Below, one piece after another: positions 2,765 to 61,271 of a stretch of DNA of 64,000 nt (positions are counted from its first letter, which is position 1; every line of letters begins with the position of its first letter). This DNA is from Halocaridina rubra. Lineage: Eukaryota > Arthropoda > Malacostraca > Decapoda > Atyidae. The notes beneath the pieces are model-generated. The model saw nothing but the letters and a program-made list of their open reading frames with translations. It made no database searches and had not been told where the DNA came from. The stretch lies in NCBI GenBank assembly GCA_037179515.1, contig JAXCGZ010000077.1, positions 1 through 64,000 of the forward strand, read 5' to 3'. Position numbers and translations under genes: made by a program.

Positions 2765-3690
2765 ATGTTTCCAAGAGCTTGAAAAATACTCTCTTTGACT
2801 CGTCTGCCCATGCGAGGTTTTACCTCGCTTTAAGGAGGTCATTTGCAGCAAAGGTGCAGCAATAGTATTAAAGTGTGGAATGAACTGTTGGTAGTAGCTA
2901 ACACTACCCAGAAATGATCTTAGTTGAGTGAGAGTAGCAGGTTTTTCCATATCCTTAATAGCTCGCACCTTGTCCTATATAGGAGACATAGCTCCTTCTC
3001 CGATCAAGTGGCTGAAATACTGCAATTGTGTGAAACCAATCTCGCATTTGGAAGGTTTTAAATGAAGTCCATGCTATTTCAGAGGAGTGAGAACTCTACA
3101 AAGAGTCGTGAGGTGCTATAACCAATCCTGAAAATGCACGAAAATATCATCCATAAAGCAAGAAACGTTATTGAGGTCCTACAATACTGTCTTTATGAGT
3201 TGGCTGAAGCAGCCAGGGGCATTCACCATCCCAAAAGGCATGACCCTGAACTGGCATAGATCGTATCATGTGGAAAAGGCTGTTAGAGGCTTGGTAGTCT
3301 TGGTCAGTAGGACTTATCAAAATCCACTGGCCAGATCCAGTTTGGACAAGTAGCGGGTTCGAGAGAGTAATGAGAAAATATGCTTGGTGTAGGCAATGGG
3401 CTCTCCGTCAAAGATGGTATGGGAACTAAGGTTACGACATTCGAGGCAGAACCTGTGACTGCCAATTCACTTATGCACTGCCAGTAACGGTGAACACCAA
3501 GGCGAAATGCTCTTTTCAACTATTCCGAGACGGACCCAAGATTTCCTTCAGCTGTACGGAAAGCTCGTGGGGAAGGCCATAGGAATGCCGAAATGGCTCT
3601 GGGTTAGTCAATCTGACATGATGCTTAAGGGTAGCGGTAGTGCCTGGGAGGTCGTTGTATTGCCATCAATATTTAACATGCAATTGTTGA
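2765..3690 (-). pseudogene. Element G-A reverse transcriptase (decayed)
   Basis: This is the RT of the oldest family G copy (G-A). Minus-strand reading gives the RT thumb motif IKDMEKPATLTQLRSFLGS, then YYQQFIPHFNTIAAP, and upstream the SKLDLASGFWQ-type region and the FMDDIFVHFQD-equivalent of the catalytic box. Several frameshifts and stops break it. The RT N-terminus is joined near 3655 to the integrase C-terminal tail through a deletion of the linker present in G-B (14140-14470). RNase H is missing because LINE-B lies beyond 2765. Confidence 0.8.
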
Positions 3691-4060
3691 CGGTCACACG
3701 GTGTACCTTAGTGTATAATCCATTCTAGCATAGCATTAGATTGTGAGTATCTGTTGAAAGAAGTAACAGAGCTCGATCTCCGGGTGTCAGGGCCCAACAC
3801 CAGGCACGCTTGTCAAAGAGGAGCTTGTCAGTCTTCTGGTGATCCTTAATGGCTAATTGGGAAGTTTTCCAGGCCTTTGTGAGATGGGACGTAGACTTCA
3901 AAATATACTCATGGACGTCCCTATCGTCATCCTTGATGGTAGGTGAGTCCCAACACTCTGCCAAGAATTCCACTGGGCTTCTGACCTTATGACCATACAT
4001 CATCTCGAAAGGCCAATATCCAATAGTGTCGTGGGGTGTGTGTCTCAAGAAGAAAAGTGC
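3691..4060 (-). pseudogene. Element G-A integrase, C-terminal part
   Basis: The minus strand encodes RHTPHDTIGYWPFEMMYGHKV followed by VEFLAECWDSPTI and ALTPGDRALLLL: the end of the integrase core and the C-terminal domain, as in G-B and G-C. It sits between protease (4080-4400) and RT (2765-3690), so the PR-IN-RT order is visible here too. The zinc-binding and most of the catalytic core are deleted. Confidence 0.8.
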
Positions 4061-4531
4061 AGCGGGATGAACTTGTGGGGCTTTTCACTTGTAGTATTTG
4101 CAGTCCATGTCAATGACACAGCAGCGTCATATCTGAAGTTCTCCCCCAGCAACCCGGACTCGAATGACTTTGCCTGATGAATCTCTCATCAACAAACATG
4201 CCACTGGTCCCTGTTTAGAGGGCTATCTCAGCTTCCACACCATTGATGGTTCCTAGGTATTTTGGGATCATCTCGGGATCATCAAGTTTGGTGAATTCCA
4301 CATTGGCAAGTTTGTATTGTGGTTCCTCGGCGTTATCCTCAGTGGCCCTTTCTGGCATTGTTTCTACGGCATTGGCCAAATGAATGGCTAGACGGTTATG
4401 AGGGCAGCTGCTATGAGAGCTAGTGTGGTGGCTCTTAGAGTTTAGCTGAAAACCCTAGGAAGGTGTAGCAGGGTAATTGCCCTCTCCTCTGAACTGCTCA
4501 GGCTTAGGTCTTACCAAGTCGTCCTTCTTGA
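4061..4531 (-). pseudogene. Element G-A protease and Gag 3' end
   Basis: This is a retroviral-type aspartic protease that would process the Gag-Pol precursor. Minus-strand reading gives LANVEFTKLDD, IPKYLGTINGVEAEIAL and then a stop codon followed by TGTSG. In other copies this site reads LDTGA or LDTGS, so the catalytic aspartate codon itself has become TAA. The stretch 4401-4531 is the proline/lysine-rich end of Gag and is interrupted by LINE-A after ...TTCTTGAGTG. Gag continues at 9426-10055 on the other side of LINE-A. Confidence 0.8.
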
Positions 4532-4534
4532 GTG

Positions 4535-4562
4535 ATTACCTAATTGTGATTACCTAATTGTG
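4535..4562 (-). repeat. LINE-A 3'-terminal 14-bp repeats
   Basis: Two copies of ATTACCTAATTGTG (sense strand CACAATTAGGTAAT) end the element. The same ending is found at 22248-22275, 25397-25424, 45552 on and 45877 on, always at the 3' edge of a LINE-A copy. CR1/L2-type LINEs characteristically end in short tandem repeats. Confidence 0.85.
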
Positions 4563-10055: not shown

Positions 10056-12080
10056 TGTGGGCATGGAGGGTTGTTAAGATTCTGTTTTACTAAGGAGACT
10101 TAAAGTACTGAACTCGGTTAAGAGCTCACAAACAGACAGGACAGATATTTGTACTTGAACACCCCACCCGTATATCAATACTTGGTTAAATGAAACTCAG
10201 AATTCAACTTTCTTTTAATATTGGAAATGCAATGACACATTAAAAGAATTGAATTAATTTTTTGAATTAAAATTTTAAGGAATGCTGCCTCGGATTCTGG
10301 AGTTGGTGAGCATGATTTCGTTTCCCAGTACCACAAGTGGATGCCAAGACTTTGGCCTCAACTCGATGATTACCTCTGTCACACAGGCAGAGTAGAATAG
10401 AGGACACTGCAATTGCAGAAACAGAAACGACTCACCGTTAATAATGGGAAACTGAAAGCACGAGCACACATATAATGAGTTTCTAATATTATTCTATTGG
10501 ATGAAAATATATTGATTAGTCACAGCTAACCAGAAATATTTATACTACCATAAGAGCATACAAAATTATTAAGTCTTTGCTGGTATTAAAGAAAAACAAT
10601 TTATTCACAATAAATGAAGAATAAGCAAGACAAATACAGTACTGTATGTATTCCTTAAATTGTGGGCAATCCCAATAGTTGCAATGCCTATTAATGATAT
10701 ACAATTTATATGGTAAAACACTCTATTTACGATAAAGGAAGAATCTATGAAATAAAAACAGTATTCATTCACTTTTGGTTATCAAGAACTATTTGCAATG
10801 AAAAAGGGGCAAAACCACCTTTTGAAGTATTTGCAACTTATAACTCAAAACACTATATCCCCAATATATGAAGAATCAGCAAGATAAATACAGTATATAA
10901 TCATTAAATTGTGGTTAACAAGAAATATTTGCAAAGCCAACAGGGTGAAACTAGAATTTGTTAGAAGAAGGGATAGATTTTTACGGGCTCATAACCAATC
11001 TTCAGAGGATGAGATTCTCATTTACCATATTCAGTGAAAGAAACTTCTTAGCAGTGTATATCAGATGTAATTTCCAGGTTAAGGAATTAAGTTTGGCAAG
11101 TGAGATTCCAGTTAGGTAATCTACTAAAGTTCGTTTGTATGGGGATGGAATCTGAGAAAATTTTCATAGGATTTGACCAGTAACAAATGTAACTAATTCT
11201 CGAAATCCCAATTTGTTTAACCCACGAGCTTTACCATACACTATCCCTAACCTTGTTTGTGCCAGATGAATTCCTGTGAAGATGCCATGTAAATAAGGTT
11301 TGAAATAAGCTTGACTGCTGAGGTGAGATCTTGCCTCTGGGATGTTTGGCCGCCAAATGAGGACGCTTCAATGTCTCACCTGTTGACATCTTCTGTAGGA
11401 TATATTTCCAGATCAGTAACTGGCTCTTATATCCTTTAAGTGCTACTTTAGTGGTGGCCCCTGGCAGGCTATTATGGCAGAAATGCAAGGGAGAGACAGT
11501 ATTTTAGGTGCAACAAGTGGAAGCAAATAAAATAATACGAGAATAATTATGGAAAAGTAGGTTACTGGTAAACAATCTCTAGAACGTTCTTTGCGTTGTA
11601 GAAGACAGAACTTAACTATTCAAATAATAAAGAAGGTACTGAAATGTATTTAGACAGGCTAATGATGTAACAGCAAGGTCAAATTAATAACAAAATTATC
11701 AGAAATAAAAATTTTTATAATATAAAAAAATTATTAGCGAGAGCTATTTTATCATAAGAAAATTGTAAAGCAAACGTATCTGATAGGCTCGCTGAAGAAA
11801 GGGAATGGTAGGATAACAGAAATAGGGGGCAGCCTTTATATTGGGATCATGCATGAGGCAGCCTTTATATCGGGATCATGCTTTCTACACATACTAGAAT
11901 ATTAAATAAGATATATTCAAAATTAGCCATAAGCTAAAATATAAATTGCAAATAATCATAATCTGCAAAAGGCAAGGAGTGGGAATTATTTTTAGTTAGA
12001 AAAATGACAGATAAGTTACTAAATTAACTAATAAGGCATCTAACAGCCTCTTGTAACTTTGAGCAAAACACTCTGTCACA
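10056..12080 (-). repeat. Element G-B 3' LTR (2,025 bp)
   Basis: The reverse complement starts TGTGACAGAG and ends ...CCATGCCCACA. It is homologous along its length to the LTRs at 33924-36022, 43153-45229 and 56095-58040. It contains a duplicated TATA-like segment near 11830-11870 and a block of degenerate ~115-bp units (about 10560-10960). No real gene is present. A ~64-codon open frame at 10275-10469 recurs in other LTR copies and is discussed separately. Confidence 0.85.
11829..11886 (-). promoter_or_regulatory. Duplicated TATA-like core promoter in the G-B LTR
   Basis: On the sense (minus) strand a segment containing ATATAAAGGCTGC occurs twice, 29 bp apart. G-C and G-E LTRs carry one copy (near 35805 and 56319). 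It lies ~220 bases from the LTR start, which would leave a short U3 and a very long R-U5. That it is a promoter is an inference from the TATA sequence and its place in the LTR. Confidence 0.4.
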
Positions 12081-12687: not shown

Positions 12688-14290
12688 CTACCGACTAGTC
12701 AAATTGAGGATAACAGCACCAGCTTCCTCATTGGAGGGTAACGACCGTCGACTTAGTAGATCAGCGAGGTCATTGTCCTTTCCATCAACATGTTGGGCAG
12801 TGAATTTGAAAAGATTCAGGTAAAGTGCCCACCTTTTCAGGCAAGAAATCAGTTTGTCTGCAGTCTGTAAATATATGAGAGGATGGTGGTCGGTTCTCAG
12901 TGTAAAATGTCGGCCATACAGATGGACTTCAAATTTCTTTATGGCTCAATATGCAGCTAAAGCTTCCTTTTCCACGGTGAAGTAATTTCGCTCTACAGGG
13001 AGAAGCCTGCATCTTGCTTATCGCATTAGAGCTATTTCTATTGAGTTGTCTGATCGGGCTTGCAAGAGCACGGCACCCAGGCCTTTGTCTGAGGCGTCTG
13101 TCCGCAAGATAAATAGAAAATCAGGGTTTCCAGTTGTAATACTGGCTCACCAGCCAATGCTTCTCGGAGCTTTAAAAATGCTCTCTCCGCTTCGTCTGTC
13201 CATTGGACAGGGGAGGTTTTACCTTGCTTTGAGGAGGTCATTTGCTGCATAGGGGCAGCGATAGTATTAAAGTGTGGAATGAACCATTGGTAGTAGCCGA
13301 CACTACCCAGGAATGATCTCAGTTGAGTGACAGTAGGAGGTTTCTCCATATCCTTAATAGCTTGTACCCTGTCCTGTAAAGTGGACATAAGCCCTTCTCT
13401 GCCCAAGTCGCCGAGACACCTCAGTTGTGTGAAACCAATCTCACATTTGGAAGGCTTTAAATGAAGTCCATGCTGGTTTAGACGAGTGAAAACTCTGCGA
13501 AAAGTCTCGAGGTGCGATGACCAATCCTGAGAATGCACCAGGATGTCGTCTATAAAGCATAAAACATTGTCGAGGTCTTGTATTACTATCCTCATGAGTC
13601 TGCTGAAGCAGCCAGGGGCATTCACCATGCTAAAAGGCATGACCCTGAACTGGTATAGACTATATCTTGTGGAAAAGGATGTTAGGGGCTTAGTAGTCTC
13701 GCTCAGCGGGACTTGCCAAAATCCACTGGCCAGATCCAATTTGGACAGGTAACGGGCTCGGTAGAGCATCAAGAAAATATGCTTGGCGTCAGCAGTGGGC
13801 TCTCCATCAAATATGGTACGAGAGTTAAGCTTACGACAGTCAAGGCAGTACCTGTGACTGCCATCTCGCTTATGCACTGCCAGTAACGGTGAACACCAAG
13901 GCGAAATGCTCTTTTCAACTATTCCGAGGCGGACCCAAGTGTCAAGGTCTTCCTTCAGCCGTACGAACAGCTGGTGGGGAAGGCCATTGGAATACCGAAA
14001 TGGCTCTGGGTCAGTCAATCTGACATGATGCTCAAGGGTAGCGGTAATGCCTGGGAAGTTGTTGAAGACTTTCTCGTAGTCCTCTAATAGCTTGTTCAGT
14101 TGTTCCCGTTGACTCAGTTGCAGTCTGGAGTTCATAATGCAATTACTCACACTTTCCTTTCGGTGTGTGGGAATGGCAGGATCGTTACCATCATCAAAAG
14201 CTAAGCTTCTGTCTCCAATTGCAAGGGCAGTGGTTGTGGCCAAAGGAGCTTCTTCTGAAAAACTCCACTCCCGTAATTCTTTCTCCACTG
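12688..14290 (-). pseudogene. Element G-B reverse transcriptase-RNase H (end of pol)
   Basis: This is the polymerase that makes element cDNA, with the RNase H that degrades the RNA template. A long frame (14432-13038) holds, in order, a linker, LTDPEPFRYSNGLPHQ, SPWCSPLLAVHKRDG, CLDCRKLNSRT, LSKLDLASGFWQVPL, FRVMPFSMVNAPGCFSRLM, CFIDDILVHSQDW (catalytic DD), LHLKPSKCEIGFTQL and TQLRSFLGSVGYY. RNase H follows in a shifted frame (HFTLRTDH, then the connection region with DNDLADLLSRRSL), and pol ends at the stop 12688-12690. There is no integrase or chromodomain downstream; integrase lies upstream. RNase H contains a stop at the position of Trp in the WAIKKFEVH motif. Confidence 0.9.
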
Positions 14291-15480
14291 CAAGGGTGGA
14301 GTATTCCAATATAGGAAATAAGGGGTGGCTATAATGAAGCACCTGTGTTGCTGCAGCCTCGGAGGTTCTGTTGATGCTGAGGGGTTGCAGAGAGTGCCAG
14401 CGCAGGATCCCTGTGGGCCTCCGGGTCATCACAATACAGCTTTAGCTGGTTAATGTGGTATTTCCGGTTATTGCCGTCAACATTTAGCACGTAATTGTCA
14501 GGGGTCACCAAGTGTACCTCAGTGTACGGTCCTTTCTAGTGTAGCATTAGCTTGCGAGTATCTGTTGGAAGAAGTAACAGAACTCGATCTCCGGGCGTCA
14601 GGGCACGACGCCGGGCACTCTTTTCAAAGAGGAGATTAGCAGTCTTCTGGTGACACTTATTGGCTGAATTTGCAGTTTTTCAAGACTTTTAGAGATGGGA
14701 CGAAAACTTCAAAATATACTCAGGGACGTCCCTATCATCATCTTCAATGGTAGGCGAATCCCAACATTCTGCCAAGAATTCCACTGGGCCTCTGACCTTA
14801 TGATAATAAATCAGCTCGAAAGGCAAGTATCCAGTGGTGTTGTGTTGCATGTCTCTGAAGGAGAAAAGTGTAGCAGGGACGTACTTGTCCTACTGCCTAG
14901 GTATATCTATCACTAGCTTGTACAAACATCGCTTCAATGTCTTGTTATAGCGTTCACATGCGTCTTTTGAAAGGGCATGACGCTCATAAGAATGTGCTTC
15001 ATTTCTAAGAGGTTACAGAAAGCCTCAAAGTGCCTACTTGTAAACTGACTTCCATTATCAGAAGTGACCTAATCAGGAAACCCAACCCTGGAGCAGATTT
15101 CAAATAGGGCATGAGCGACTGCTTCGGTCGTGATAGGATACAGCGGCACTGCATCTGGGTACCTTGTTGCCAGGTCGACGTATGCCAGGAGGATCTGTTT
15201 CCCAGTGGACGAAGCTGGATTAATAGGAACTAATATGTCAATAGCAACCTTGGAAAATTGCTCATTTGAGTGCTTAGTTATTCTTATGGGAACTCTTGGT
15301 ACCAGTACCATAGAGGTGGATTGACAGACATGGCAGGAGCCCATGTATCTGTCTACCTCGGCGTACATGTTTGGCCATGCAAAAGCCTTCTGAAGGACAT
15401 GCCGAGTTTTTGCTTTGCCTCTGTGTCCACTCAAAGGAAAATGGTGTGCCACATACATAGCCTAGTGGAGTAACAATGCG
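14291..15480 (-). pseudogene. Element G-B integrase, located upstream of RT
   Basis: This is a DDE integrase that inserts the cDNA. In sense order: zinc-binding HHCC region (HHFPLSGHRGKAK ... CHVC at 15460-15320), catalytic core with Asp1 in KVAIDILVP, ATRYPDAVPL, Asp2 in TSDNGSQF (~15055) and Glu in ACERYNKTLK (~14945), then the C-terminal domain (TPDNYVLNVDGNNRKYHINQ) near 14500. A stop separates GFPD from VTSDNG. It lies between protease (15870-16260) and RT (below 14290), the reverse of the usual gypsy order and the Gmr1-type arrangement. The fact that the same order occurs in G-A, G-C and G-D argues against a local rearrangement. Confidence 0.9.
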
Positions 15481-15869
15481 GGCACCACCAACTATTTAAA
15501 GGTGTGGCCATCTTTAGTCACATGCCTATAAAGTTCTCCATCTTCAAGGGTGTAAGTGGTCTGGCCTCCTCCTCTCACCATGGAGGTTCTTTCTTCCTCC
15601 AGTGGCCTGTTGCATCCAGCGTTTGAGGCTGGGGCAGTCTTGCTGCAATTTGGCAAAGTCTTGACAGGACTTCAGTGACTCTAGAGGTGCATCATCTGTT
15701 TAAGGAGGGGGAAACTCTCTGCGTTCCACATTACGTGTCCTAACTGCGGCAGACTCAACAGAGTCAGTCGGAGAATCGTCCAAATTCTTGGCATCTTAGC
15801 CAGGAGTTGCTGCTGAAATGGCTTGTTTTGACTTCGTCCGAGGGATATTTCAGTGAGAAATGTCCTCAT
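15481..15869 (-). pseudogene. Element G-B protease-integrase linker of pol
   Basis: Coding remnants in alternating frames include ISLGRSQNKPFQQQLLAKMP (15869-15681) and an acidic/proline stretch. They connect the protease to the integrase zinc-binding region. The same linker is present in G-D (49350-49740). No known domain recognised. Confidence 0.6.
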
Positions 15870-16260
15870 GGAAGAGGTCAGCCTGGAAGATTGGAGCTAG
15901 GTTCAGTACACGACCCAGCAAGACAGGGTACATAAGTCCAATCAATGCCACAACTGGGGCTTTTCCCTTGTAGTATTTGCATTCCAGGTCAATGACACAG
16001 CAGTGTCATATTCGAGGTATTCCTTCAGCAACCCGCACACGAACGACTTTGCCGGTAAAATCTTCATCCCTGACGAACTTCTCGTCAACAAATATGCCAC
16101 TGGCCCCTGTGTCGTGGGCTATCTCAGCTTCCACACAATTTATGGTTTCTAGGCATTTTGGGATCATTTCCAGATCATGTTCAATGAATTCCACATTGGC
16201 AAGTTTTTTCGGTATTTCCTCGGCATTATCCTCAGTGGCCCTTTCTGGCCTTGTTTCCAC
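15870..16260 (-). pseudogene. Element G-B aspartic protease
   Basis: This is a retropepsin-type protease. The sense frame gives LANVEFIEHDLEMIPKCLET, then AEIAHDTGASGIFVDEKFV with an intact DTGA catalytic motif, then GKVVRVRVAEG. A second-half motif of the GLMYPVLLGR type follows in another frame (~15915). It is preceded in the same stretch by the Gag C-terminus without a visible boundary; G-F shows Gag and protease share one frame. Confidence 0.85.
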
Positions 16261-17437
16261 AACATGGGCCGAGTGAGTGGCTGGACGGATATGCAGGCTG
16301 CCGCTGTGAGAGGGAGTGTGGTGGCTCTAAGAGTTTGGCTGAAAACACATTGAAGGTGGAGCAGAGTAATGGCCCTCTCCTCTGAACTGCTGAGGCTTAG
16401 GTCTTACCGAGCCATCGTTCTTGAGTGTGGGTGTATAGCCCTAATAAGGCTTATGAGTTTGAGGAGGATGAGCTGGATGATGAGAGTTCTGCAAGGGGCC
16501 CTTGTGCTTCTCATTCTGTGATCTCCTTTCCGGTGAGAAGCAAGGCCTGCTGCGGAAGAGATGAAACTCTGAGGACAAGTCTTGGAATCGGCCCTTCTTG
16601 ATCTCATAGCATCACAGAGACGTACTCCAGGCTGGTTGTGCTGGAGGTACTCATCCACAGCGGCTAAGTTTTTCTCGTAGTGAGTCTCATCCTTAAGCTG
16701 AGTCCTTACATATGCAACAATATCCGGAGGGAGGTCATAGGCAATTGCATCAAATATCAAGAAAGAATACAACTTCTCAGAAAGACACTTTGCAACTCGC
16801 AACTAATCATTGAAGAGGTGAGCCTTGCGTTTGCCAAAGGTACTACAGTTCTCCTCCTTCAATGGGAAAGCAGAAATATATCTTTCACGACACTCAGCTG
16901 ATGAGAATTTCTGCAAGGCCAGGAGTGTGCTTTTAACTTTCTCATAGTCCCTCAGTTGCGTTTGGTCAAGTTCATTGACCAGGGGTGGCATGGAGGCATG
17001 GAGGCGAGCAACCTATGACTCTTCTCAGTCTCTGTGCCTCCGCTAGCTGTCAAAGACTTTCGAAAGAGCTGATGTAAGTATCAAGTGGTTGCTTGCCGTC
17101 GTATTCATATTTCTGTATTGGGGGAGCCTCTCACGATGCTGGTCCCCATTTCCAGATGAAGGACCACTGTCTGGGATTCCCGCTCAAAGCCGAGCAAGCG
17201 CAAGCTCATGTTCGCGTTGTGCTTATGCCTCATCACGGGCTTTCTTCTCCAGCTCAGCTCGGCGTTCAACCATCTTGTCATGAGTCCATTCGAAGAGCTT
17301 CTGTCCTGGGGAAAGACCGTATCTCGCACCCCCTAGCAATCGTCATGTTCAGGTAACACTCCTCATCGAATGTTTCAATGGTTTCCTGTGACTGCCTGGT
17401 TTCCACGTTTGTTTCTCCTGACTGCCCAGTTGTCATG
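16261..17437 (-). pseudogene. Element G-B Gag
   Basis: This is the structural Gag, which would form the particle and bind element RNA. It starts near 17437 with a repeated MET-type N-terminus (...ETRQSQETIETFDEE), then YGLSPGQKLFEW, a short E/Q/A-rich coiled-coil region (RDEAQAQREHELALARL), a capsid-like region (DYEKVKSTLLA, AECRERYISAFPLKEENCS, HLFND), then DIVAYVRTQLKDE and LRHNQPGVRLCD-type segments, and a basic His/Lys/Pro-rich tail. There is no CX2CX4HX4C zinc knuckle. Several frameshifts and stops occur. Confidence 0.8.
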
Positions 17438-18532: not shown

Positions 18533-18550
18533 GTCCCTGTTCAGGCGCCA
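18533..18550 (-). other. Primer binding site of element G-B (tRNA-Lys type)
   Basis: The sense sequence TGGCGCCTGAACAGGGAC differs by one base from TGGCGCCCGAACAGGGAC at 58045. That 18-mer is complementary to the 3' end of tRNA-Lys(3). It lies four bases after the LTR end. Confidence 0.85.
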
Positions 18551-18554
18551 ATAT

Positions 18555-19356
18555 TGTTGTGGGAATGGAGGGTTGTTAAGTTTCTGTTTTACCAAGGGCC
18601 TCAAAGTACTGAACTTGGTTAAGAGTTCACAAATAGACAGGACAGATATTTGTACTTGAATAACGAACTCGTATACCACTATTTGGTAAAATGAAACTCA
18701 GAATTCAACTTCTGCTTTAATTTTGGAAATGCAATAACACATTAAAAAAATTGAATAAAATTTTTGAATTAAAATTTTAAGGAATGCTGCCTCAAATCCT
18801 CTAGGTAGTGAGCACGATTTTGTTTCCTGGCACCACAGACGGATGCCAAGACTTTGGCCTCAACTCGACGATTACCTCTGTCACACAGGCAGAGTAGAAT
18901 AGAGGACACTGCAATTGCAGAAACAGAAACAACTCACCGTTAATAATGGGAAACTGAAAGCACGAGCACACATATATGAGTTTCCAATATTATTCTGCTG
19001 GATGAAAATAAATTGATTAGTCACAGCTAACCAGAAATATTTATGCTACTGTAAGAGCATACAAAACCATTAATTCTTTGCTGGTATTAAAGGAAAACAA
19101 TTTATTCACAATAAATGAAGAATAAGCAAGACAAATACAGTACTATATGTATTCCTTAAATTGTGGGCAACCCCAATAGTTGCAATGCTTATTAATGATT
19201 TACAATTTATATAGTAAAACACTCTACTTACGATAAAGGAAGAATCTACGAGATAAATACAGTATTCATTCACTTTTGGTTATCAAGAACTATTTGCAAT
19301 GAAAAAGGGGCAAAAACACATTTTGAAGTATTTGCAACTTATAACTCAAAACACTA
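18555..19356 (-). repeat. Element G-B 5' LTR, segment 1 (3' portion of LTR)
   Basis: This is the LTR end adjoining the PBS (the reverse complement ends ...CCCACAACA), homologous to 10056-10855. It is interrupted by LINE-A copy 3 at ...AAAACACTA. Confidence 0.85.
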
Positions 19357-33923: not shown

Positions 33924-36022
33924 TGTTGGGGGAATGGTAGAGTTGTTGTTATTCTGTTTTACTAAGGGGACTCAAAGTACTGAGTTTGTTTAAGAGCTCA
34001 CAAACAGACAGGACAGATATTTGTACTTGAACACCCCTCCCTTATACCACTACTCGGTTAAATGAAACTCAGAATTCAACTTTCTTTTAATTTTGGAAAT
34101 GCAATGACATTAAAGGAATTGAATTAAATTTTTTAAATAAAATTTTATGAAATGCTGCCTCGAATCCTGGAGGTGGTGAGCACGATTTCGTTTCCCGGCA
34201 CAACAGATGTATGCCAAGACTTTGGCCTCAACTCGACGATTACCTCTGTCACACAGGCAGAGTAGAATAGAGGACGCTGCAATTGCAGAAACAGAAACGA
34301 CACCCTGTTAATACTGGAAAACTGAAAGCATGAACACATATACAATGAGTTTCCAATATTATTCTACTGGATGAAAATATATCGGTTATTCAAAGCTAAC
34401 CAGAAATTTTTATGCTACCATAATAGCATACAAAACCATTAATTCTTTGCTGGTATTAAAGGAAAACAATTTATTCACAATAAATGAAGAATAAGCAAGA
34501 CAAATACAGTACTGTATGTATTCCTTAAATTGTGGGCAACCACAAAAGTTGCAATGCTTATTAATGATTTGCAATTAATATTATAAAACACTCTATTTAT
34601 GATAAAGGAAGAATCTACGAGATAAATACAGTATTCAGTCACTTTTGGTTATCAAGAACTGTTTGCAATGAAAAAGGGGTGGGGGGCAAAACCACCTTTT
34701 GAAGTATTTGCAACTTATAACTAAAAATACTTTATCCCCAACATATGAAGAATGAGCAAGATAAATACAGTATGCATTCATTAAATTGTGGTTAACAGGA
34801 AATATCTGCAAAGCCAAAAGGATGAAATTACCTTTTAATTATTTGCAGTTTATAGCATAAAACACTTTAGTTAAATGATTAATCATTTGCAATTTATATA
34901 GCAAATAGCTTTATTCACGAGTTTTTGACGTAAAACAGTATATTTACGATGATAGAAAGAGGTGAAATGAAATTAGAATTTATTAGGAGAAGGCATAGAT
35001 ATTTACAGGGTTATAACCAGTCTTCAGAGGATGAGATTTTCGTTTATCACATTCAATGAAAAGAAACTTCTTGGCAATGTATATCAGCTGTAATTTCCAC
35101 GTTAAGGAATTAACTTTGGCAAGTGAGATTCCAGTTAGGTAATTTACAAAATTTCGTTTGTATGGGAATAGAATCTGAGAAAAAATTCGTAGGATTTAAC
35201 CAGTAACGAATGTAACTAATTCTCGAAAAACCAATTTGCTTGACCCAGGAGCTTTACCATACACTATCCCTCACCTTGTTTGTGCCAGATGAATTTCTGT
35301 GAAGATGCCACGTAAATAAGGTTTAAATAAACGTGTCTGCTGAGGCGAGATGCTGCCTCTGGGATGTTTGGCCGCCAAATGAGGACGCTTCAATGTCCCA
35401 CCTGGTGACATAATTTGTAGGATATATTTCTAGAGCAGTAACTGGCTCTTATATCATTTAAGGAATACTTTAGTGGTGGTCCCTGGCAGGCAATTATAGC
35501 AGAGATGCAAGGGAGAGACAGTATTTTAGGTGCAACAAGTGGAAGCAAATAAAATAAAACGAGAATAATAATGGAAAGTTACGTTACTGGTAAACAATCT
35601 ATAGAAAGTTCCTTGCGATGTAGGAGACGGAATTTAAGTACTCAAATAATAAAGAAGCTACTGATATATATCTAGACAGGCTAATGACATAACAGCAAGG
35701 TCAAATTTATAACAAAATTATCAGCAAGAGCTATTTTATCATAAGAAAATTGTAAAGAAAACGTACCTGATAGGTTCACTGAAAATGTGGAAAGGTAGGA
35801 GCAGCATTTATATCGGGACTCTGCTTCTACACATACAAGAATAGTAAATAAGATATATTTAAAATTAGCTATAAGCTAAGATATAAATTGCAAATAGTCA
35901 TAATCTGCAAAAGTCAAGAAATGGGAATTATTTTTAGTTAGAAAGATGAGAGTCAAGTTACTAAATTAACTATTAAGGCATCTAGCAGCCTCTGGTGACT
36001 TTGAGCGAAATACTCTGTCACA
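33924..36022 (-). repeat. Element G-C 3' LTR (2,099 bp)
   Basis: The reverse complement starts TGTGACAGAG and ends CCATTCCCCCAACA. It includes the degenerate ~115-bp unit block (about 34430-34900) and one TATA-like segment near 35805. Highly similar to 43153-45229. Confidence 0.88.
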
Positions 36023-36660
36023 AAGGCCCTTTCTAGAGAATATTGATTTAGCAATATTCTACAACAGAATGCGAAAAAAGAACAGAGGAAGTTATGGTGA
36101 CTTCAGTGTTATTATGAGGGATGAGATATCCTTCTCATGGAAAAGAACAAATGAACAATAAGAAGGGATCCACCACTGGAACATATCATACTATTCGGAA
36201 AAGTGAACAAGTCTCATAAGCAAAACATTAAATGACATGCAAAACATAAAATAAATGTGATCAAATTCAAATTTAATGAAAATTAAAATCACAATTAAAT
36301 ATCAGTGAATATCAATATTTAAGTTTAAGAATGCTTCACATGCAAGAAGGCAATAATATATAAAAAAAAAAACTACAGTATATGCGAATAGAAAATTTGA
36401 ACCGCGTGGTATTTAACATTGGCGACTGGATTTAAAACAGTTTCAGCTATTCAACGCTAAACTAAAATGTTTCTGCCATGTTCTGGCTTTCAGAGTCCCA
36501 CAAAGGGAAATTTAAAACTACGATCAAAGAAATATTCTTCATCTTTTTCGTCTTCCATTAGGAATAACGTTTGTACTCTAAAATAAACAAGTACAGTACA
36601 GTATTAAAAACATAAACGATAAACATAAAAAATAAACAACACATTAGAGAAGTAATCTTT
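36023..36660 (-). other. Element G-C polypurine tract and 3' untranslated region
   Basis: The tract TCTAGAAAGGGCCTT lies against the 3' LTR (36023-36037), as in G-B. The remaining ~620 bases up to the pol stop are noncoding and homologous to 12097-12687. Confidence 0.6.
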
Positions 36661-38117
36661 ACCGACTAGTCAAATTGAGGCTAACAGCACCAGCTTCCTC
36701 ATTTGAGGGTAACGACCGTCGACTTAGAAGATCAGCGAGGTCATTGTCCTTGCCATGAACATGTTGGGCAGTGAATTTGAAAAGATTCAGGTAAAGTGCC
36801 CACCTTTTCAGGCAAGGATTAAGCTTGTCTGCAGTCTGTAAATATAGGAGAGGTCAGTGGTCGGTTCTCAGTGTAAAATGTTGGCCATACAGATGGACTT
36901 CAAATTTCTTTATGGCCCAATATGCAGCTAGAGCTTCCTTCTCCACGGTGGAGTAATTTCGCTCTGCAGGGCGAAGCCTGCAGCTTGCATATTGCACTGG
37001 AGCTACTTCTGCTGAGTTTTCTGATCGGGCTTGCAAGAGCACGGCACCCAGGCCTTCATCTGAGGCGTTGGTCTGCAAGATAAATGGAAAATCAGGGTTT
37101 ACCAGTTGTAATACTGCTCACCCGCCAATGCTTCTCGGAGCTTTAAAAATGCTCTCTCCGCTTCATCTGTCCATTGGACAGGGGAGGTTTTACCTTGCTT
37201 TGAGGAGGTCATTTGCTGCAAAGGGGCAGCGATAGTATTAAAGTGTGGAATGAGCCGTTGGTAGTAGCCGACACTACCCAGGAATTATCTCAGTTGAGTG
37301 ACAGTAGCAGGTTTCTCCATATCCTTAATAGCTTGTACCCTGTCATGTAAAGGGGACATAACTCCTTCTCCGACCACGTGGCCGAGATACTGCAATTGTG
37401 TGAAACCAATCTCACATTTGGAAGGCTTTAAATGAAGTCCATGCTGGTTCAGACGAGTGAGAACTCTGCGGAGAGTCTCGAGGTGCGATGACCAATCCTG
37501 AGAATGCACCAGGATGTCGTCTATAAAGCATGAAACATTGTCGAGATCCTGTAGTACTATCCTCATGAGTCTGCTGAAGTGGACAGGGGCATTTACCATA
37601 CTAAAAGGCATGACCCTGAACCGGTATAGACCATATCTTGTGGAAAAGGCTGTTAGAGGCTTGTTAGTCTCGCTCAGCGGGACTTGCCAAAATCCACTGG
37701 CCAGATTCAACTCGGACAGGTAGCGGGCTTGGGAAAGCAACGAGAAAATATGCTCGGCATCAGCAAAGGGCTCTCCATCAAAGATGGTACGGGAGTTAAG
37801 CTCACAACAGTCAAGGCAGAACCTGTGACTGCCATCTCACTAATGCACTGCCAGTTACGGCGAACACCAAGGCGAAATGCTCTTTTCAACTATTCCGAGG
37901 CAGACCCAAGTGTCAAGATCATCCTTCAGCAGTATGGACAGCTGGTGGGGAAGACCATAGGAATGCCGAAATGGCTCTGGGTCAGTCAATCTGACATGAT
38001 GCTCAAGGGTAGCGGTAATGCCTGGGAGGTCGTTGAAGACTTTCTCATAGTCCTCTAATAGCTTGTTGAGCTGTTCCCATTGATTCGGTTGCAGTCTTTA
38101 GTTAATAATGCAATTAC
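36661..38117 (-). pseudogene. Element G-C reverse transcriptase-RNase H
   Basis: The RT frame 37740-37285 shows LSELNLASGFWQVPL, FRVMPFSMVNAP, CFIDDILVHSQDW and IKDMEKPATVTQLR. The RT N-terminus lies in other frames up to ~38100. RNase H (37078-36854) shows QTNASDEGLGAVLLQ, TVEKEALAAYWAIKKFEVHL and LRTDH. The first catalytic Asp of RNase H (TDAS in functional enzymes) is Asn here. The connection region ends near the stop at ~36660, and no integrase follows. Several frameshifts. Confidence 0.88.
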
Positions 38118-38902
38118 TCACACTTTCCTTTTGGTGTGTGGGAATGGCAGGATCCTCACCATCATCAAAAAAGCTAAGCTTATGTCTTCAACTGCGAGGG
38201 CGGTGATTGCGGCCAGAGGGGCTTCTTCCGAAAAACTCCACTCCCGTAAGTCTGTCTCCACTGCAAGGGTGGAGCATTCCAATATAGGAGGTAAGGGGTG
38301 GCTATAATGGAGCACCTGTGTTGCTGCAGCCTCGGAAGTTCTGTTGATACTGAGGGCATCTATAGGGGTTGCTGAGAGTGCCAGCGCAGGACCCCTGTGG
38401 GCCTCCGGGTCTTCACAATAAAGCTTCAGCTGTTTGATGTGGTATTTCCGGTTATTGCCATCAACATTTAGCACGTAATTGTCAGGGGTCACCCGGTGTA
38501 CCACAGTGTACGGTCCTTTCCAGCGTAGCATTAGCTTGCGGGTATCTGTTGGAAGAAGTAACAGAGCTCGATCTCCGGGTGTCAGGGCACGACGCCGGGC
38601 ACGCTTGTCAAAGAGGAGCTTGGCAGTCTGCTGGTGACCCTTAATGGCTAATTGTGCAGTTTTCCAAGCCTTTTTGAGGTGAGATGAAAACTTCAAAATA
38701 TACTCTTGGACGTCCCTATCGTCATCTTCGATGGTAGGTGAATCCCAACATTCTGCCAAGAATTCCACTGGCCCTCTGACCTTTTGACCATAAATCAGCT
38801 CAAAAGGTGAGTATCCAGTAGTGTCGTGGGGCGTGTCTCTGAAGGAGAAAAGTGCAGCAGGGACGTACTTGTCCCACTGCCTAAGTATATCTATCACTAG
38901 CT
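38118..38902 (-). pseudogene. Element G-C integrase C-terminal half fused to the RT linker
   Basis: One uninterrupted frame of ~260 element codons runs from integrase core (WDKYVPAALFSFRDTPHD, TGYSPFELIYGQKVRGPVEF) through the C-terminal domain (LTPGDRALLLLPTDTRKLML, GPYTVVHRVTPDNYVLNV) into the linker that leads to RT (TEAAATQVLHYSHPL-type, LREWSFSEEAPLA). Because integrase and RT linker share a frame, the integrase-before-RT order is a property of the polyprotein. The N-terminal half lies at 42348-42892, beyond LINE-C. Confidence 0.9.
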
Positions 38903-39099
38903 TTTTTTTTTTTTTTTTTAAGAGTGTGACACCAGGACAGGCAGAAACTGCCCTCATCAACAAAGGCCCGGGCACGAGAAAATACCAAGACGAAGGAAAA
39001 GAAAAAGGTCAAGTGCAAGGCAGAGATGAAGTAATGTCACACAAAGGAAACGACAGACAGGAAAAAACAGTCAATGCAAAGAGGACCCAGAGATATGGA

Positions 39100-40910
39100 G
39101 GACTAGGCTCTGAGATGACGATAGATCTGCGTTTTGAAGGATGAAAGGTCATAAGAATTAGGAAAGACAGAAGGAGGAAGAGAGTTCCAGAGTCTGGAGG
39201 TAGATGGGAAAAAGCAGTCGCTGCACCGACCAATCCACGAGCTACAAATCTCCACACTGTACCTGTGAGATGAGGCCACTTGGCGAGTGTTATGTGGCCT
39301 CGGCAGTGGAGGAGGGATGCAACTCGCCAACTCATCAGAGCAGTGATGGAAAGAGTAGCGATAGAAAAGCAAAAGGGAAGATACCTTACGGCGAAGAGAG
39401 AGAGAATCCAGGTTAGAAGTAAGAGAAGGATCATTAATGAGTCTGACTGCCTTAGATTGAACCCTATCAAGAAGATAAGTAAAGGAATAAGCACCCCGGA
39501 TGTGTGAGCAGTATTCTAAGCAGGGGCGGATAAGACCTTTGTAAATTTTAAGTAACTGCAATGAGGAAAAGTAATAATGAAAACGAAACAAAACCCCCAA
39601 TTTTTTGGGTGAAGATTTTGAAATTTGGATTATGTGATTCCTCCAAGACAAGTTAGAGGCTATATGGATTCCTAATATATTGATAGAGTTAAGAGAGTAA
39701 ATTTCATTAGTTTCGAAGACAATAGGGTTATCAGGAGGAGAAGAAGATAAAGAGATAACCAGAAACTGTGTCTTAGAGGTATTGAATTTAACTAAATTTT
39801 GAGTGCCCCATTCAGATACTCTCTGCAAATCGGAGTAAAGAGTAGAAGAAAGAGAGATACGAGATTGATTTCGAGTAACAGATGAAGGTTGTGAAGAAAA
39901 GGCAGAGGAAAAGTGAAGGGTAGAATCATCGGCAAAGGCATGAAGAAGAGAGGAAGATGGGGATTGTAGAAGATCATTGATGAAGAGAAGGAAGAGAGTA
40001 GGTGAAAGAACAGAGCCCTGTGGAACACCATTGGAAACAGAGAAAGGGCTATATGTTGTGCCATCAACAACTACAGATATAGAATGGTCAGAAAGAAAAC
40101 TGGAAATCAGAGAACAGAAAGAAGGGGTAAAGCCATCGGCAGGGAGTTTGGCCAACAGAGCCTTGTGCCAGACTCTATCAAAAGCCTTAGTGATATCAAG
40201 GGCGACGACAAAGGATTCCCCATAGTTCCTCAGAGAAGATGACCATACATGAGTAAGATAGGACAGGAGATCACCAGTGGATCTTGCCTTGCGGAAGCCG
40301 TACTGGTGATCGGAGATAAGTGAGTTAGATTCAAGGCATTTCAAGAAGTGAGCATTGAGCAAAGTTTTGAAAACTTTAGCAATGGAGAAGGTTAGAGCAA
40401 TAGGTCGGTAGTTTAAAGGAATAGAGCGATCACCCTTCTTAGAACAGGTTGAACTAGAGCATGCTTCCAAGATGAAGGATAGATACTGGTTGACAGAATG
40501 AGGCGAAAAAGACGGCAAAGCACGGGAGCCAGTTCATCTGCAAACTCCTTAAGGAACCTTGCAGGGATACCATCGGGACCAGATGCCTTGTTTGTCTTTA
40601 GTGAGCGAAGAAACTTATGAACATTGCGTGAAGAAAGGATAAGGGAGGGCATAGGGTTAGAGAGGGGAAAAGACTGAGGAACAGGTGCGCTGGAATCGTT
40701 GATAGAAGAGTTGGCAGAAAAATGAGAGCCAAAGAGAGTGGCTTTGTCAGTAGGAGAGCAAGCTATAGAACCATCAGAACGAATGAGAGGGGGAAAGCTT
40801 GAGTTACAGAAGTTTTTGGAGAGGTTTTAGGCTAAGGACCAGAAGCATTTGTCAGTGGAAGATGAGTTAAGGTCATCAACTTTCCTTCTTATAAAGGAAG
40901 CCCTAGACCT
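39100..40910 (-). pseudogene. LINE-C ORF2: reverse transcriptase part
   Basis: The N-terminal RT piece (40652-40413) has NKASGPDGIPARFLKEF and IYPSSWKHALVQPV. A frameshift near 40440 leads to a 470-codon frame ending at 39103 with IPLNYRPIALT, DHQYGFRKARSTGDLL, VVALDITKAFDRVWH, GVPQGSVLSPTLFLLFIN, HAFADDSTLHF (catalytic DD), VKFNTSKTQFLV and PCLEYCSHIRG. The C-terminal basic region ends FKTQIYRHLRA. 40653-40910 has stops (LSLA-stop-NLSK). Apart from those lesions the RT looks intact. Confidence 0.88.
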
Positions 40911-42164
40911 TCAAATCTGAGCTGTACAGCGATTCCTAGCTATAATAAAAGCAGAGCAAGTTAAATCGGAAGGAGAGGCTTGGTAAGATTTGTGAGCCTG
41001 ATTCCTAGCCTGGATTGCCATGGAGCAGGCACGGTCAAACCAAGGTTTAGGGGGAGAGAAAGTTTTTGTAGAAGAGGGGATGTACGCCTCCATTCCCGCG
41101 GTCATGATCTCGGCAACTTTTACAGCTACCCGATCAGGGTTGCGGGACCGAAAGCAGTAGTCATCCCATGGAAAGTCAAAGAGAAAGTTACGCAAATTTT
41201 CATATTGGGTTCGCTCGAAGTGCCAAAGGCGGCGTTGAGTAGGAGGGATTGGTGGTGGGGGAGCGAAAATGGAAGAGACAGAGATCATGTAGTGGTCAGA
41301 TATACCAAGAGGGGAAAGCACAGAATAAGAGTAGTTTGAAGTGTTAGAAGTAAAAAATAGGTCAAGAGTGTTTGCAGCATGTTCGTGACAATCAGGAACG
41401 CGAGTAGGATTTTTGATAATTTGCTCCAGATCGTGAGTAATAGAGAAAGTAAGAGCCTCGCTTCCTCCCACATCAGTGTGAGAAGAATGAAGCCACTCAC
41501 TGTGGTGTACATTGAAGTCTCCAATGTAGAGAACTTCGGCATGTGGGTGAGAAGATAGCAAGGACTCATGGCACAAGGAGAGATATTCAAAGAAAGACAT
41601 AAACTCGGTGGAGTTTGGAGAACAGTAGCAGAAGCAAAGGATGATAGTGGTAGTGGAGAGATAGACTTTTAGCCAGAGAACATCAAAGTCAGGAGATTCA
41701 AGGTCCATGATCCTCACAGTAGGAGTGTTAATGTTGCAGTAAGCACAGACCCCACCTTTGGAACGAAAACGAGTATACAGATTATAGTGGGAGATTTGGA
41801 AAGGGTCAGTGGAAGCATGTATAGACAACTGGGTTTCAGATAGGAGGAGGAGGTTAGGGAGGAAAGTGCCCAAGTGCTGTTCCACAGACGAAAGATTAGA
41901 GTTCAACCCACGAATGTTTGAATAGTGAAGAGTGAAAGAAGCAGATCTATTGGGAGGTGCAAGGTTAAGAGCAGACCCATAACTACCACCAGGCGTGTCT
42001 GCCCTCAAGCCAATGGTGGAGTAAACACGATCCCTGGAGATTCTTCGCACCCCACTATGCCGGGTACTGGGGGCCATTAGTTGTGAACCTTCCATAGATA
42101 ATGACAAAATGTGAGGAAAAGGAAAGTAAAAGAGATAGATGTGCAGAATGTTGTGACTTGTCAA
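40911..42164 (-). pseudogene. LINE-C ORF2: APE endonuclease part
   Basis: A 417-codon frame with the motifs LHYSNIRGLNSNL, LLLLSETQLSI (metal-binding Glu), VLYIGDFNVHHSEW (catalytic GDFN), NTLDLFFTSN and LGISDHYMISV (SDH). All signature residues are present. A stop after RNRCTAQI cuts it from the RT. The first ~30 residues upstream of SMEGSQ may not be translated. Confidence 0.87.
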
Positions 42165-42347
42165 ATGTAATGGAATAGCAAGAGATGTGTAATGAATTTG
42201 CCAGAATATTCAGTGTAGATGTAGGCATGAGGAAAGAACCGTCCTGAAGAAAGACTCAACCTGGAACTGTCTGGACCAGTCCTAGTTGCATACTAATACC
42301 TTCAGTCGTAGTCTCTCAACGGGCGGCTGGTGCCATGGCCAACCTAC
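42165..42347 (-). other. LINE-C 5' untranslated region
   Basis: About 180 bases upstream of the endonuclease ORF, with a GC-richer outermost stretch (GGCCATGGCACCAGCC on the sense strand). It ends where family G integrase sequence resumes (CTTGCGCAAACATAGC). Confidence 0.6.
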
Positions 42348-42892
42348 TTGCGCAAACATAGCTTCAATGTCTTGTTATAGTGCTTGCATGCTCCATTTGA
42401 TTGGGCAAGATAGACACTCGTATGAATTTGCTTCATTTCTAAAAGGTTACAGAAAGCCTCGAAGTGCCTACTTGTAAACTGACTTCCATTGTCAGAAGTG
42501 ACCTGCTCAGGAAAGCCAACCCTGGAGCAGATATCAAATAGGGCATGAGCGACTGCTTCAGTTGTGATAGAAGACAGTGGCACTGCATCTGGGTACCTTG
42601 TTGCCAGGTCAACGTATACAAGGAGGAACTGTTTCCCCGTGGACGAAGCTGGATTAATAGGACCTAATATGTCAATACTGACCTTGGAAAATGGCTCCAT
42701 TGAGAGCTTAGTTATCCCCATGGGAACTTTCGGCAGCGGTGCTGTAGAGGTGGATTGACAGACAGGACAGGAGCCCACATATCTGTCTACCTCGGCGTAC
42801 ATGTTTGGCCATGCAAAAGCCTTCTGAAGGACGTGCCGACGTTTTGCTTTGCCTCTGTGTGCACTCAGAGGTAAATGGTGTGCCACATAATC
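42348..42892 (-). pseudogene. Element G-C integrase N-terminal half
   Basis: An open frame of 180 codons: zinc-binding HHCC (HHLPLSAHRGKAK ... CPVC), core Asp1 in VSIDILGPI, DLATRYPDAVPL, Asp2 in TSDNGSQFTSRHF, and the Glu position in ACKHYNKTLK, where Glu is Lys in this copy (G-B has CERYNKTLK). So the DDE triad is broken by one substitution. Upstream it joins the leader directly, which shows that gag and protease were deleted. Confidence 0.9.
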
Positions 42893-43130
42893 TCATGTAG
42901 ATTTCCTGGTATTTTGTTTACCACATGGGAAACAAGAAAATATTAGTTACCGTAATTAATTTTGAAAATTAAAAAAAAATTCTGATCCGCAACGTCTCTA
43001 GCAATAAAATTTTCGTGTGCAGCCTATGATTCATTCATTTCAATAATCGAGCCAATGGTAATTGGGTTTCATGTGCAATGTTAAAAAGCAAAATAAAAAT
43101 AAATTTATCAAAATCAGTCTGTCTGTTCGG
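42893..43130 (-). other. Element G-C leader remnant
   Basis: This is the PBS-proximal ~240 bases of the leader, homologous to 18290-18530. The rest of the leader, gag and protease are missing. Confidence 0.75.
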
Positions 43131-43148
43131 GTCCCTGTTCGGGCATCA
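43131..43148 (-). other. Primer binding site of element G-C
   Basis: The sense sequence TGATGCCCGAACAGGGAC matches the tRNA-Lys type site at 58045 in 16 of 18 bases. Confidence 0.85.
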
Positions 43149-43152
43149 ATCT

Positions 43153-45229
43153 TGTTGGGGGAATGGTAGACTTGTTGTTATTCTGTTTTACTAAGGGGAC
43201 TCAAAGTACTGAGCTCGGTTAAGAGCTCACAAACAGACAGGACAGATATTTGTACTTGAACACCCAACCCGTATACCACTACTCGGTTAAATGAAACTCA
43301 GAATTCAAATTTCTTTTAATTTTGGAAATGCAATGACATTAAAAGAATTGAATTAAATTTTTTAAATTAAATTTTATGAAATGCTGCCTCGAATCCTGGA
43401 GGTGGTGAGCATGATTTCGTTTCCCGGCACAACAGATGTATGCCAAGACTTTGGCCTCAACTCGATGATTACCTCTGTCACACAGGCAGAGTAGAATAGA
43501 GGACACTGCAATTGCAGAAATAGAAATGACACACTGTTAATAATGAGAAACTGAAAGCATGAACACACATATAATGAGTTTCCAATATTATTCTACTGGA
43601 TGAAAATATATTGGTTAATCAAAGCTAACCAGAAATTTTTATGCTACCATAATAGTATACAAAACCATTAATTCTTTGCTGGTATCAAAGGAAAACAATT
43701 CCTTCACAATAAATGAAGAATAAGCAAGACAAATACAGTACTGTATGTATTCCTTAAATTGTGGGCAACCACAAAAGTTGCAATGCTTATTAATGAATTG
43801 CAATTAATATGGTAAAACACTCTATTTATGATAAAGGAAGAATCTACGAGATAAATACAGTAGTCATTCACTTTTGGTTATCAAGAACTGTTTGCAATGA
43901 AAAAAAAGGGGGGGGGGCAAAACCACCTTTTGAAGTATTTGCAACTTAAAACTAAAAATACTTTATCCCCAACATATGAAGAATCAGCAAGATAAATACA
44001 GTATGCATTCATTAAATTGTGGTTAACAGGAAATATCTGCAAAGCCAACAGGGTAAAATTACTTTTTAATTATTTGCAGTTTATAGCATAAAACACTTTA
44101 GTTAAATGATTAATCATTTGCAATTTATATAGCAAATAGCTTTATTCACGAGTTTTTGATGTAAGACCGTATATTTACGATGATAGGAAGAGGTGAAATG
44201 AAATTAGAATTTATTAGGAGAAGGGATAGATCTTTACAGGCTCATAACCAGTCTTCAGAGGATGAGATTTTCATTTATCACATTCAATGAAAAGAAACTT
44301 CTTGGCGATGTATATCAGCTGTAATTTCCACGTTAAGGAATTAACTTTGGCAAGTGAGATTCCAGTTAGGTAATCTACAAAATTTCGTTTGTATGGGAAT
44401 GGAATCTGAGAAAAAATTCGTAGGATTTAACCAGTAACGAATGTAACTAATTCTCGAAAAACCAATTTGCTTGACCCAGGAGCTTTACCATACACTATCC
44501 CTCACCTTGTTTGTGCCAGATGAATTTCTGTGAAGATGCCACGTAAATAAGGTTTGAAATAAACTTTACTGCTGAGGCGAGATGTTGCTTCTGGGATGTT
44601 TGGCCGCCAAACGAGGATGCTTCAATGTCCCACCTGGTGACGTCATCTGTAGGATATATCTCTAGAGCAGTAACTGGCTCTGATATCATTTAAGGAATAC
44701 TTTAGTGGTGGTCCCTGGCAGGCAATTATAGCATAGATGCAAGGGAGAGACAGTATTTTAGGTGCAACAAGTGGAAGCAAATAAAATAAAACGAGAGTAA
44801 TAATGGAAAGTTAGGTTACTGGTAAGCAATCTCTAGAATGTTCTTTGCGTTGTAGGAGACGGAATTTAAGTACTCAAATAATAAAGAAGCTAGTGATATA
44901 TATCTAGACAGGCTAATGAAATAACAGCAAGGTCAAATTTATAACAAAATTATCAGCAAGAGCTATTTTAGCTTAAGAAAATTGTAAAGAAAACGTATCT
45001 GATAGGAGTAGCCTTTATATCGGGACTCTGCTTCTACACGTACAAGAGTAATAAATAAGATAAATTTAAAATTAGCTATAAGCTAAGATATAAATTGCAA
45101 ATAATCATAATCTGCAAAAGTCAAGAAATGGGAATTATTTTTAGTTAGAAAGATGAGAGTCAAGTTAGTAAATTAACTATTAAGGCATCTAACAGCCTCT
45201 GGTGACTTTGAGTGAAGCACTCTGTCACA
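43153..45229 (-). repeat. Element G-C 5' LTR (2,077 bp)
   Basis: Full LTR with ends TGTGACAGAG...CCCCCAACA on the sense strand, closely similar to 33924-36022. A run of A and G near 43901-43917 marks the boundary between two of the ~115-bp units and varies in length between copies. Confidence 0.88.
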
Positions 45230-58040: not shown

Positions 58041-58044
58041 AGAT

Positions 58045-61267: not shown

Positions 61268-61271
61268 AGAT

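What the first reader, a model, noticed from the sequence alone, without database searches (positions are those of the whole stretch)
12688..17437. Gypsy-type retrotransposon family with integrase before reverse transcriptase (Gag-PR-IN-RT-RH), Gmr1-like
In element G-B the order on the sense strand is Gag, protease (DTGA), integrase (HHCC, DDE, C-terminal domain), RT (FIDD), RNase H, then 3' UTR and LTR, with nothing after RNase H. G-A, G-C and G-D, at different sites and on both strands, show the same order, so it is not a local rearrangement. Established knowledge: nearly all Ty3/gypsy elements have PR-RT-RH-IN; the Gmr1 clade (named for the Atlantic cod element) is the known exception with copia-like order. 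As I recall, Gmr1-like elements were described mainly from deuterostomes, so a family in an apparent decapod genome would extend their range or be a separate origin of the order.
Basis: partly seen in the sequence, partly recalled or inferred. Interest (0 to 1): 0.88.

Follow-up and report, generated by a model that had tools for sequence, protein, structure and literature searches.

The report
Gmr1-type retrotransposon with forward-moved integrase
The window holds copies of an abundant jumping-gene family whose integrase is encoded before, not after, its reverse transcriptase; the arrangement is real but belongs to a known group, the Gmr1-like elements, already reported from decapod crustaceans.

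Summary
On the minus strand G-B reads Gag, protease (DTGA), integrase, reverse transcriptase (FIDD), RNase H; LTR matches outside the given coordinates (5' remnant 19355-18568, 3' LTR 12080-10066) complete it. G-C and G-D agree; G-A keeps only the integrase C-terminal part before RT. Elsewhere in the 1.18-Gb genome RT follows integrase in 28 of 29 integrase-seeded loci (the other stretch ends first), and in 14 of 14 loci that reach RNase H, none with integrase after it within the stretch held. RT and integrase trees agree: the integrase-first rows used (molluscs, echinoderms, fish, newt, Penaeus, Eriocheir, this family) lie on one side of a branch from conventional ones (RT 100/99; integrase 91/90, not starred), which favours one origin. 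The Gag region resembles that of other integrase-first elements. Piednoel et al. 2013 already reported Gmr1-like gypsy elements in decapods, so the range claim is not new. Modest additions: the order is shown in single open frames of many copies, and the genome has a second, deeply separate integrase-first family. The host was not identified. Verdict: new member of a known kind.

The parts
10066..12080 (-). G-B 3' LTR (with internal gaps; TG start at 12080)
   Evidence: blastn to a family LTR, main pieces at 84-89% identity; LTR start motif at 12080
12688..12945 (-). G-B RNase H piece
   Evidence: Pfam RT_RNaseH 9.5e-9
13038..14441 (-). G-B open frame: linker after integrase plus reverse transcriptase (FIDD)
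   Evidence: Pfam RVT_1 2.6e-25; FIDD
14485..14904 (-). G-B integrase C-terminal part (GPY/F-like by recall)
   Evidence: tblastn 81% identity to the G-C piece; the G-C frame has an SH3_Tf2-1 hit below its cut-off
14979..15461 (-). G-B integrase zinc-binding domain and catalytic core (broken)
   Evidence: Pfam Integrase_H2C2, tblastn, D-D-E
15985..16341 (-). G-B aspartic protease (DTGA); the query piece also covers the end of Gag
   Evidence: tblastn, motif
16222..17270 (-). G-B Gag
   Evidence: tblastn pieces; profile of the pre-integrase region of 22 integrase-first proteins hits 16806-17012 at E 0.012 and 16009-16326 at E 0.0048
18533..18550 (-). G-B primer binding site (tRNA-Lys type by recall; one base differs from the form at 58045)
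18568..19355 (-). G-B 5' LTR remnant, cut by a LINE whose frame begins at 19345
   Evidence: blastn 88%; ORF 19345-20289
3020..4535 (-). G-A fragment: gag, PR, IN C-terminal part, RT (no IN core hit)
   Evidence: tblastn
33924..45229 (-). G-C: 5' LTR 45229 to about 43153, primer site 43148-43131, IN 42892-42347, non-LTR insert, IN C-terminal 38888-38469, RT 38022-37381, RH 36916-36665, 3' LTR 36022 to about 33924; flanks GGTAG/GTTAG
47970..51740 (+). G-D: gag, PR, IN, IN C-terminal part, RT
   Evidence: tblastn
56095..60086 (+). truncated copy: LTR 56095-58029, primer site 58045-58062, gag, PR
60148..63998 (+). further copy: partial LTR, primer site 61272-61289, gag, PR, runs to the window end

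Best explanation
G-B is a decayed copy of an abundant Ty3/gypsy LTR retrotransposon family of the Gmr1-like type. Shown: order Gag-PR-IN-RT-RH; no stop-free stretch over 60 residues between RNase H and the 3' LTR in 3 of 4 sampled copies (in the fourth that stretch is LINE sequence); long LTRs (about 1.9-2.1 kb, TG...CA); a primer site a few bases behind the 5' LTR; an exact 5-bp target duplication at one solo LTR. Inferred: it moves by the usual copy-and-paste cycle. The RNA is translated into one Gag-Pol polyprotein (open frames up to about 1,600 residues exist around other copies' RT), the protease cuts it, a tRNA (Lys type by recall) primes reverse transcription, and integrase inserts the DNA with a 5-bp stagger. 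Because the protease releases each enzyme, the place of integrase in the polyprotein need not change the chemistry. The order was most likely gained once, in an ancestor of the Gmr1-like group, and inherited here.
For: Order in G-B, G-C, G-D. IN-seeded loci L010-L038, the best matches after the window's own: gag/PR - IN - IN C-terminal part in 29 of 29, RT following in 28 of 29 (L020 ends first). Longer loci L039-L045: IN-INC-RT-RH in 7 of 7, no IN after RH in 7 of 7, PR upstream in the same orientation in 6 of 7 (two of these places, L039 and L040, are also L018 and L035). RT-seeded loci L056-L062: IN-INC-RT-RH in 7 of 7. Places in both the IN list and the RT list within 5 kb: IN upstream on the same strand in 14 of 14. 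RT tree: 42 integrase-first rows on one side against 13 conventional, 100/99 (18 RT-only rows not counted). IN tree: 41 against 11, 91/90, and 33 against 11, 97/90. The four integrase-bearing relatives P0239, P0240, P0241, P0247 are in this family's clade in both trees. A profile of the region before integrase from 22 integrase-first proteins ranks window Gag 62682-63218 first of 457 window frames, E 2.3e-11. Catalytic D-D-E in 23 of 29 loci, D-D-K in 4, not read in 2. LTRs, primer sites, target duplications.
Against: No authentic cod Gmr1 sequence was placed in the trees. Pfam's SCAN model hits the one intact Gag piece tried only below its cut-off (E 0.057) and not the window Gag pieces. In a first quick RT tree the second family's damaged copy L050 stood outside the integrase-first group; fuller copies joined it. 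The larger IN tree's branch (91/90) is not starred, and there the Penaeus chinensis protein P0299 sits among mollusc and echinoderm rows, on a long branch, not with Penaeus vannamei as on the RT tree. G-C's target duplication matches at 4 of 5.
Confidence: 0.94

Rival explanations
1. An independent switch of domain order inside another gypsy clade (Mag, CsRN1, Osvaldo), only resembling Gmr1.
For: Named references of these clades were not in the trees; the quick RT tree left one damaged integrase-first row outside the group.
Against: RT and IN trees each put the integrase-first rows on one side of a branch; the Gag region is also shared with integrase-first proteins.
Confidence: 0.04
2. A local artefact: rearrangement, nested insertion or chimeric assembly brings IN of one element before RT of another.
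For: The window is full of nested elements and G-C is split by a non-LTR insert.
Against: Same order and spacing on many contigs, open frames above 1,000 residues around many IN and RT matches, and database proteins with the same order.
Confidence: 0.01
3. A Ty1/copia element, for which this order is normal.
For: Order alone fits.
Against: RT and RNase H hit RVT_1 and RT_RNaseH, and no copia-type RT model was listed at E 0.001; trees place it with gypsy proteins.
Confidence: 0.01

Closest known systems
Gmr1-like (Gmr1 clade) Ty3/gypsy retrotransposons
   Same: Integrase upstream of RT, gypsy-type RT and RNase H, related Gag region, no long frame after RNase H
   Different: Very long LTRs here (about 1.9-2.1 kb, against 337-518 bp for the pufferfish rows Gmr1-Gmr4 in PMC11117352, passages read)
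Decapod Gmr1-like fragments GyRex4/GyRex5, Gychoro2, GyMaja1, GyLiva4 (Piednoel et al. 2013, PMC3587641, passages read)
   Same: Reported as Gmr1-related, from shrimps, a prawn and a spider crab
   Different: For GyRex, RT (GyRex4) and integrase (GyRex5) were separate fragments only suggested to be one element; here both lie in one open frame in many copies. No sequence comparison with these was made
Penaeus and Eriocheir database proteins P0299, P0301, P0318
   Same: Integrase before RT; next to this family's clade on the RT tree (97/83)
   Different: A separate branch, not the same family; P0318 holds only a piece of integrase, and P0299 places elsewhere on the IN tree

Membership tests
Gmr1-like Ty3/gypsy | gypsy-type RT and RNase H | tested here: met
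   RVT_1 and RT_RNaseH; RT tree
Gmr1-like Ty3/gypsy | integrase upstream of RT | tested here: met
Gmr1-like Ty3/gypsy | RT and IN group with integrase-first elements of deuterostomes | tested here: met
   one side of a branch with sea urchin, sea star, fish and newt proteins: RT 100/99, IN 91/90, not starred
Gmr1-like Ty3/gypsy | groups with the cod element Gmr1 itself | not testable with these tools
   no named cod Gmr1 record among the listed hits
Gmr1-like Ty3/gypsy | SCAN domain in Gag (in over 50% of frog Gmr elements, PMC4131045, passages read) | tested here: inconclusive
   Pfam SCAN E 0.057 on one intact Gag piece, below cut-off, none on window pieces; profile of the pre-integrase region of 22 proteins E 2.3e-11 on window Gag, best of 500 shuffles E 0.77
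Ty1/copia | copia-type RT | tested here: not met
   only RVT_1 listed for RT at E 0.001
Mag, CsRN1, Osvaldo gypsy clades | RT then IN order (recalled) | tested here: not met
   order is IN then RT; membership by sequence was not tested with named references

The most novel reading that the evidence does not exclude
The same genome carries two integrase-first gypsy families so distant (integrase 25-38% identical) that the second branches near the base of the whole integrase-first group, as deep as the fish and newt members. If that holds, the order switch is older than the spread of Gmr1-like elements through animals, and the second family is an undescribed deep lineage; an independent switch for it is not fully excluded.
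Probability: 0.3. Interest if true: 0.4.

Novelty: new member of a known kind. Interest (0 to 1): 0.27.

Why it matters
It shows in many copies of one genome that the integrase-first order is stable and compatible with large-scale spread in a probable arthropod, where the earlier decapod report had, for its shrimp, separate integrase and RT fragments. Largely agreeing RT and integrase trees support one old change of domain order over repeated shuffling. The second deep family could help to place that change.

Tried and rejected
Local rearrangement was rejected because the order recurs across contigs. Copia was rejected by RT family. L041's apparent LTR pair was first read as one element; the right-hand LTR proved to be a solo LTR inside a LINE (5-bp duplication ATAGC) and was not used for dating. 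Host identification failed: no COX1 match in the assembly, and searches for two other markers did not complete. The conventional window fragment gave a very long branch on the quick RT tree and was dropped, with P0102, L050 and P0017, before the careful tree; near-duplicates P0013, P0171, P0119, P0028, P0154, P0129 were dropped before (P0171, P0119, P0154, P0129). Only a choice of the 330 listed proteins went into the trees. Regular expressions failed to read the catalytic residues of the loci and were corrected. The repeat finder found no LTR pair in 11000-19000, which does not hold the whole 3' LTR, and the 5' LTR is cut.
Full report
What is there. The window is contig C77, bases 1-64000, of an assembly of 1.18 Gb in 21,031 contigs. 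On the minus strand, 17270 down to 12691, lies G-B: gag, PR, IN, IN C-terminal part, RT, RNase H, with Pfam support for the integrase zinc domain, RT and RNase H and the motifs DTGA, HHCC, D-D-E and FIDD. The copy is dead: integrase carries a stop and a frame change, and RT and RNase H lie in two separate open frames. LTR and primer-site matches extend the element to about 10066-19355; its 5' LTR is cut by a LINE.

Other copies in the window. G-C (45229-33924) has both LTRs, a primer site, IN, RT and RNase H, shows no gag/PR hit, and is interrupted by a non-LTR element. G-D (47970-51740, plus) has gag, PR, IN, RT. G-A (3020-4535) has only the C-terminal part of integrase before RT. Two more partial copies run from 56095 to the window end. 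A conventional gypsy fragment (RT 54949-55437, IN 53126-53758, minus) has RT first; its integrase scores weakly (23.2 bits).

Genome-wide check. A search with the G-C integrase scored 150 of 5,324 candidates, the weakest at 89% identity; a search with the G-B RT frame scored 91 of 7,682. These counts are lower bounds. Of the 29 best integrase-seeded loci other than the window's own, 29 have gag/PR upstream and the integrase C-terminal part downstream, and 28 have RT downstream. Of 7 longer loci, 7 read IN-INC-RT-RH and none has integrase after RNase H (two of these places are also among the 29). Of 7 RT-seeded loci, 7 read IN-INC-RT-RH. Places of the two lists that lie within 5 kb of each other agree in 14 of 14. 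Many rows lie in open frames above 1,300 residues, so the order is part of one reading frame. The same genome also has conventional RT-IN elements (3 of 3 stretches L046-L048), so the profiles do not force the order.

Relatives. Three protein searches listed 330 distinct proteins; one showed both domains to my profiles, 159 IN first and 13 RT first, and 158 showed RT alone. The sample is chosen by likeness and the lists are capped at 120, so the ratio is no frequency. Named integrase-first proteins come from bivalves, gastropods, sea urchins, a sea star, a brittle star, sea cucumbers, a fish, a newt, Penaeus and Eriocheir. In the careful RT tree of 73 rows all 42 integrase-first rows are on one side of a branch from the 13 conventional ones (100/99), with this family's clade next to Penaeus/Eriocheir proteins (97/83); 18 RT-only rows were not counted. 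The IN tree gives the same split (91/90, not starred, 52 rows; 97/90, 44 rows), and the four integrase-bearing relatives P0239, P0240, P0241, P0247 share this family's clade in both. So RT and IN come from one lineage. One disagreement: the Penaeus chinensis protein P0299 leaves the Penaeus/Eriocheir rows on the IN tree, where its piece is short and its branch long.

Second family. Loci L001-L008, the best integrase zinc-domain hits in the genome, are 25-38% identical to this family in integrase. With L051-L053 they are one family, 87-93% identical in DNA over at least 1.4 kb to L050 (L049, L050 and L054 are longer stretches of the places of L001, L003 and L008). Of these 11 places 8 show RT after IN (L001-L006; L051, L052), none RT before IN; in 3 (L007, L008/L054, L053) no RT was seen, and in L053 and L054 the part beyond IN reads in all frames without stops, as masked sequence does. 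A damaged copy fell outside the group in a quick tree; two fuller copies fall at its base, where they form an open fork with fish and newt proteins in the larger trees.

Structure and mode of life. LTRs start TGTGACAG and end CA; an 18-base primer site, TGGCGCCCGAACAGGGAC in L045 and at 58045, lies a few bases behind the 5' LTR, and G-B's differs at one base (tRNA-Lys type is recalled). A solo LTR has an exact 5-bp duplication; G-C's flanks match at 4 of 5. Kimura distances between LTR pairs are 0.044 (G-C), 0.026 (L043, partial) and 0.010 (L045, partial), so insertion went on over a span of time. Between RNase H and the LTR the longest stop-free stretch is 60 residues in 3 of 4 copies; in the fourth (L041, 106) the stretch is LINE sequence. 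D-D-E is kept in 23 of 29 loci, D-D-K in 4, unread in 2. Movement itself is inferred.

Gag. Gmr1-like elements are linked in print with the SCAN domain (PMC3424704 and PMC4131045, passages read). One intact Gag piece of this family (L019) hits SCAN at E 0.057, below the cut-off; window Gag pieces do not hit it. A profile of the region before integrase from 22 integrase-first proteins ranks the window's Gag 62682-63218 first among 457 window frames (E 2.3e-11); the best of 500 shuffles has E 0.77. A profile comparison of L019's Gag with the same region gives probability 91.7, against at most 1.0 in 60 shuffles.

Against the literature. Gmr1-like elements in decapods were reported by Piednoel et al. 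2013 (PMC3587641, passages read), who called them the first in protostomes; for Rimicaris the integrase and RT were separate fragments. An annelid member is reported too (PMC8220671, passages read). Goodwin and Poulter 2002 was seen only as a reference entry and as cited by others. Six paper searches in the held library were answered; within their listings I saw no account of this particular family, which proves little. The finding is a member of a known group, well documented here.

Noticed in passing
L001-L008, L049-L054 (11 places in G000): A second, distant integrase-first gypsy family in the same genome, near the base of the integrase-first group.
   Followed up: partly
window 62682-63998 and 59391-60083; L010-L038: Copies differ in two ways in Gag and PR: against the same query pieces some have gag about 90% and PR about 70%, others gag about 77% and PR about 86%, which suggests two subfamilies or exchange between them.
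   Followed up: no
window 39103-42209 (-): Non-LTR element with endonuclease-like and RT-like frames (by eye) inserted in G-C's integrase.
   Followed up: no
window 5521-7538 (-), 19345-25333 (+), 28859-30199 (-): Several copies of what looks like one LINE family, one of which cuts G-B's 5' LTR; a solo LTR of the Gmr1-type family sits inside a copy of it in L041.
   Followed up: partly
G000:C13589:16801-16974: An integrase zinc-domain hit in an open frame of 5,196 residues; could be masked sequence or an unusual large element.
   Followed up: no
window 45547-46164: Near-perfect tandem duplication of a 325-bp unit next to an LTR fragment.
   Followed up: no
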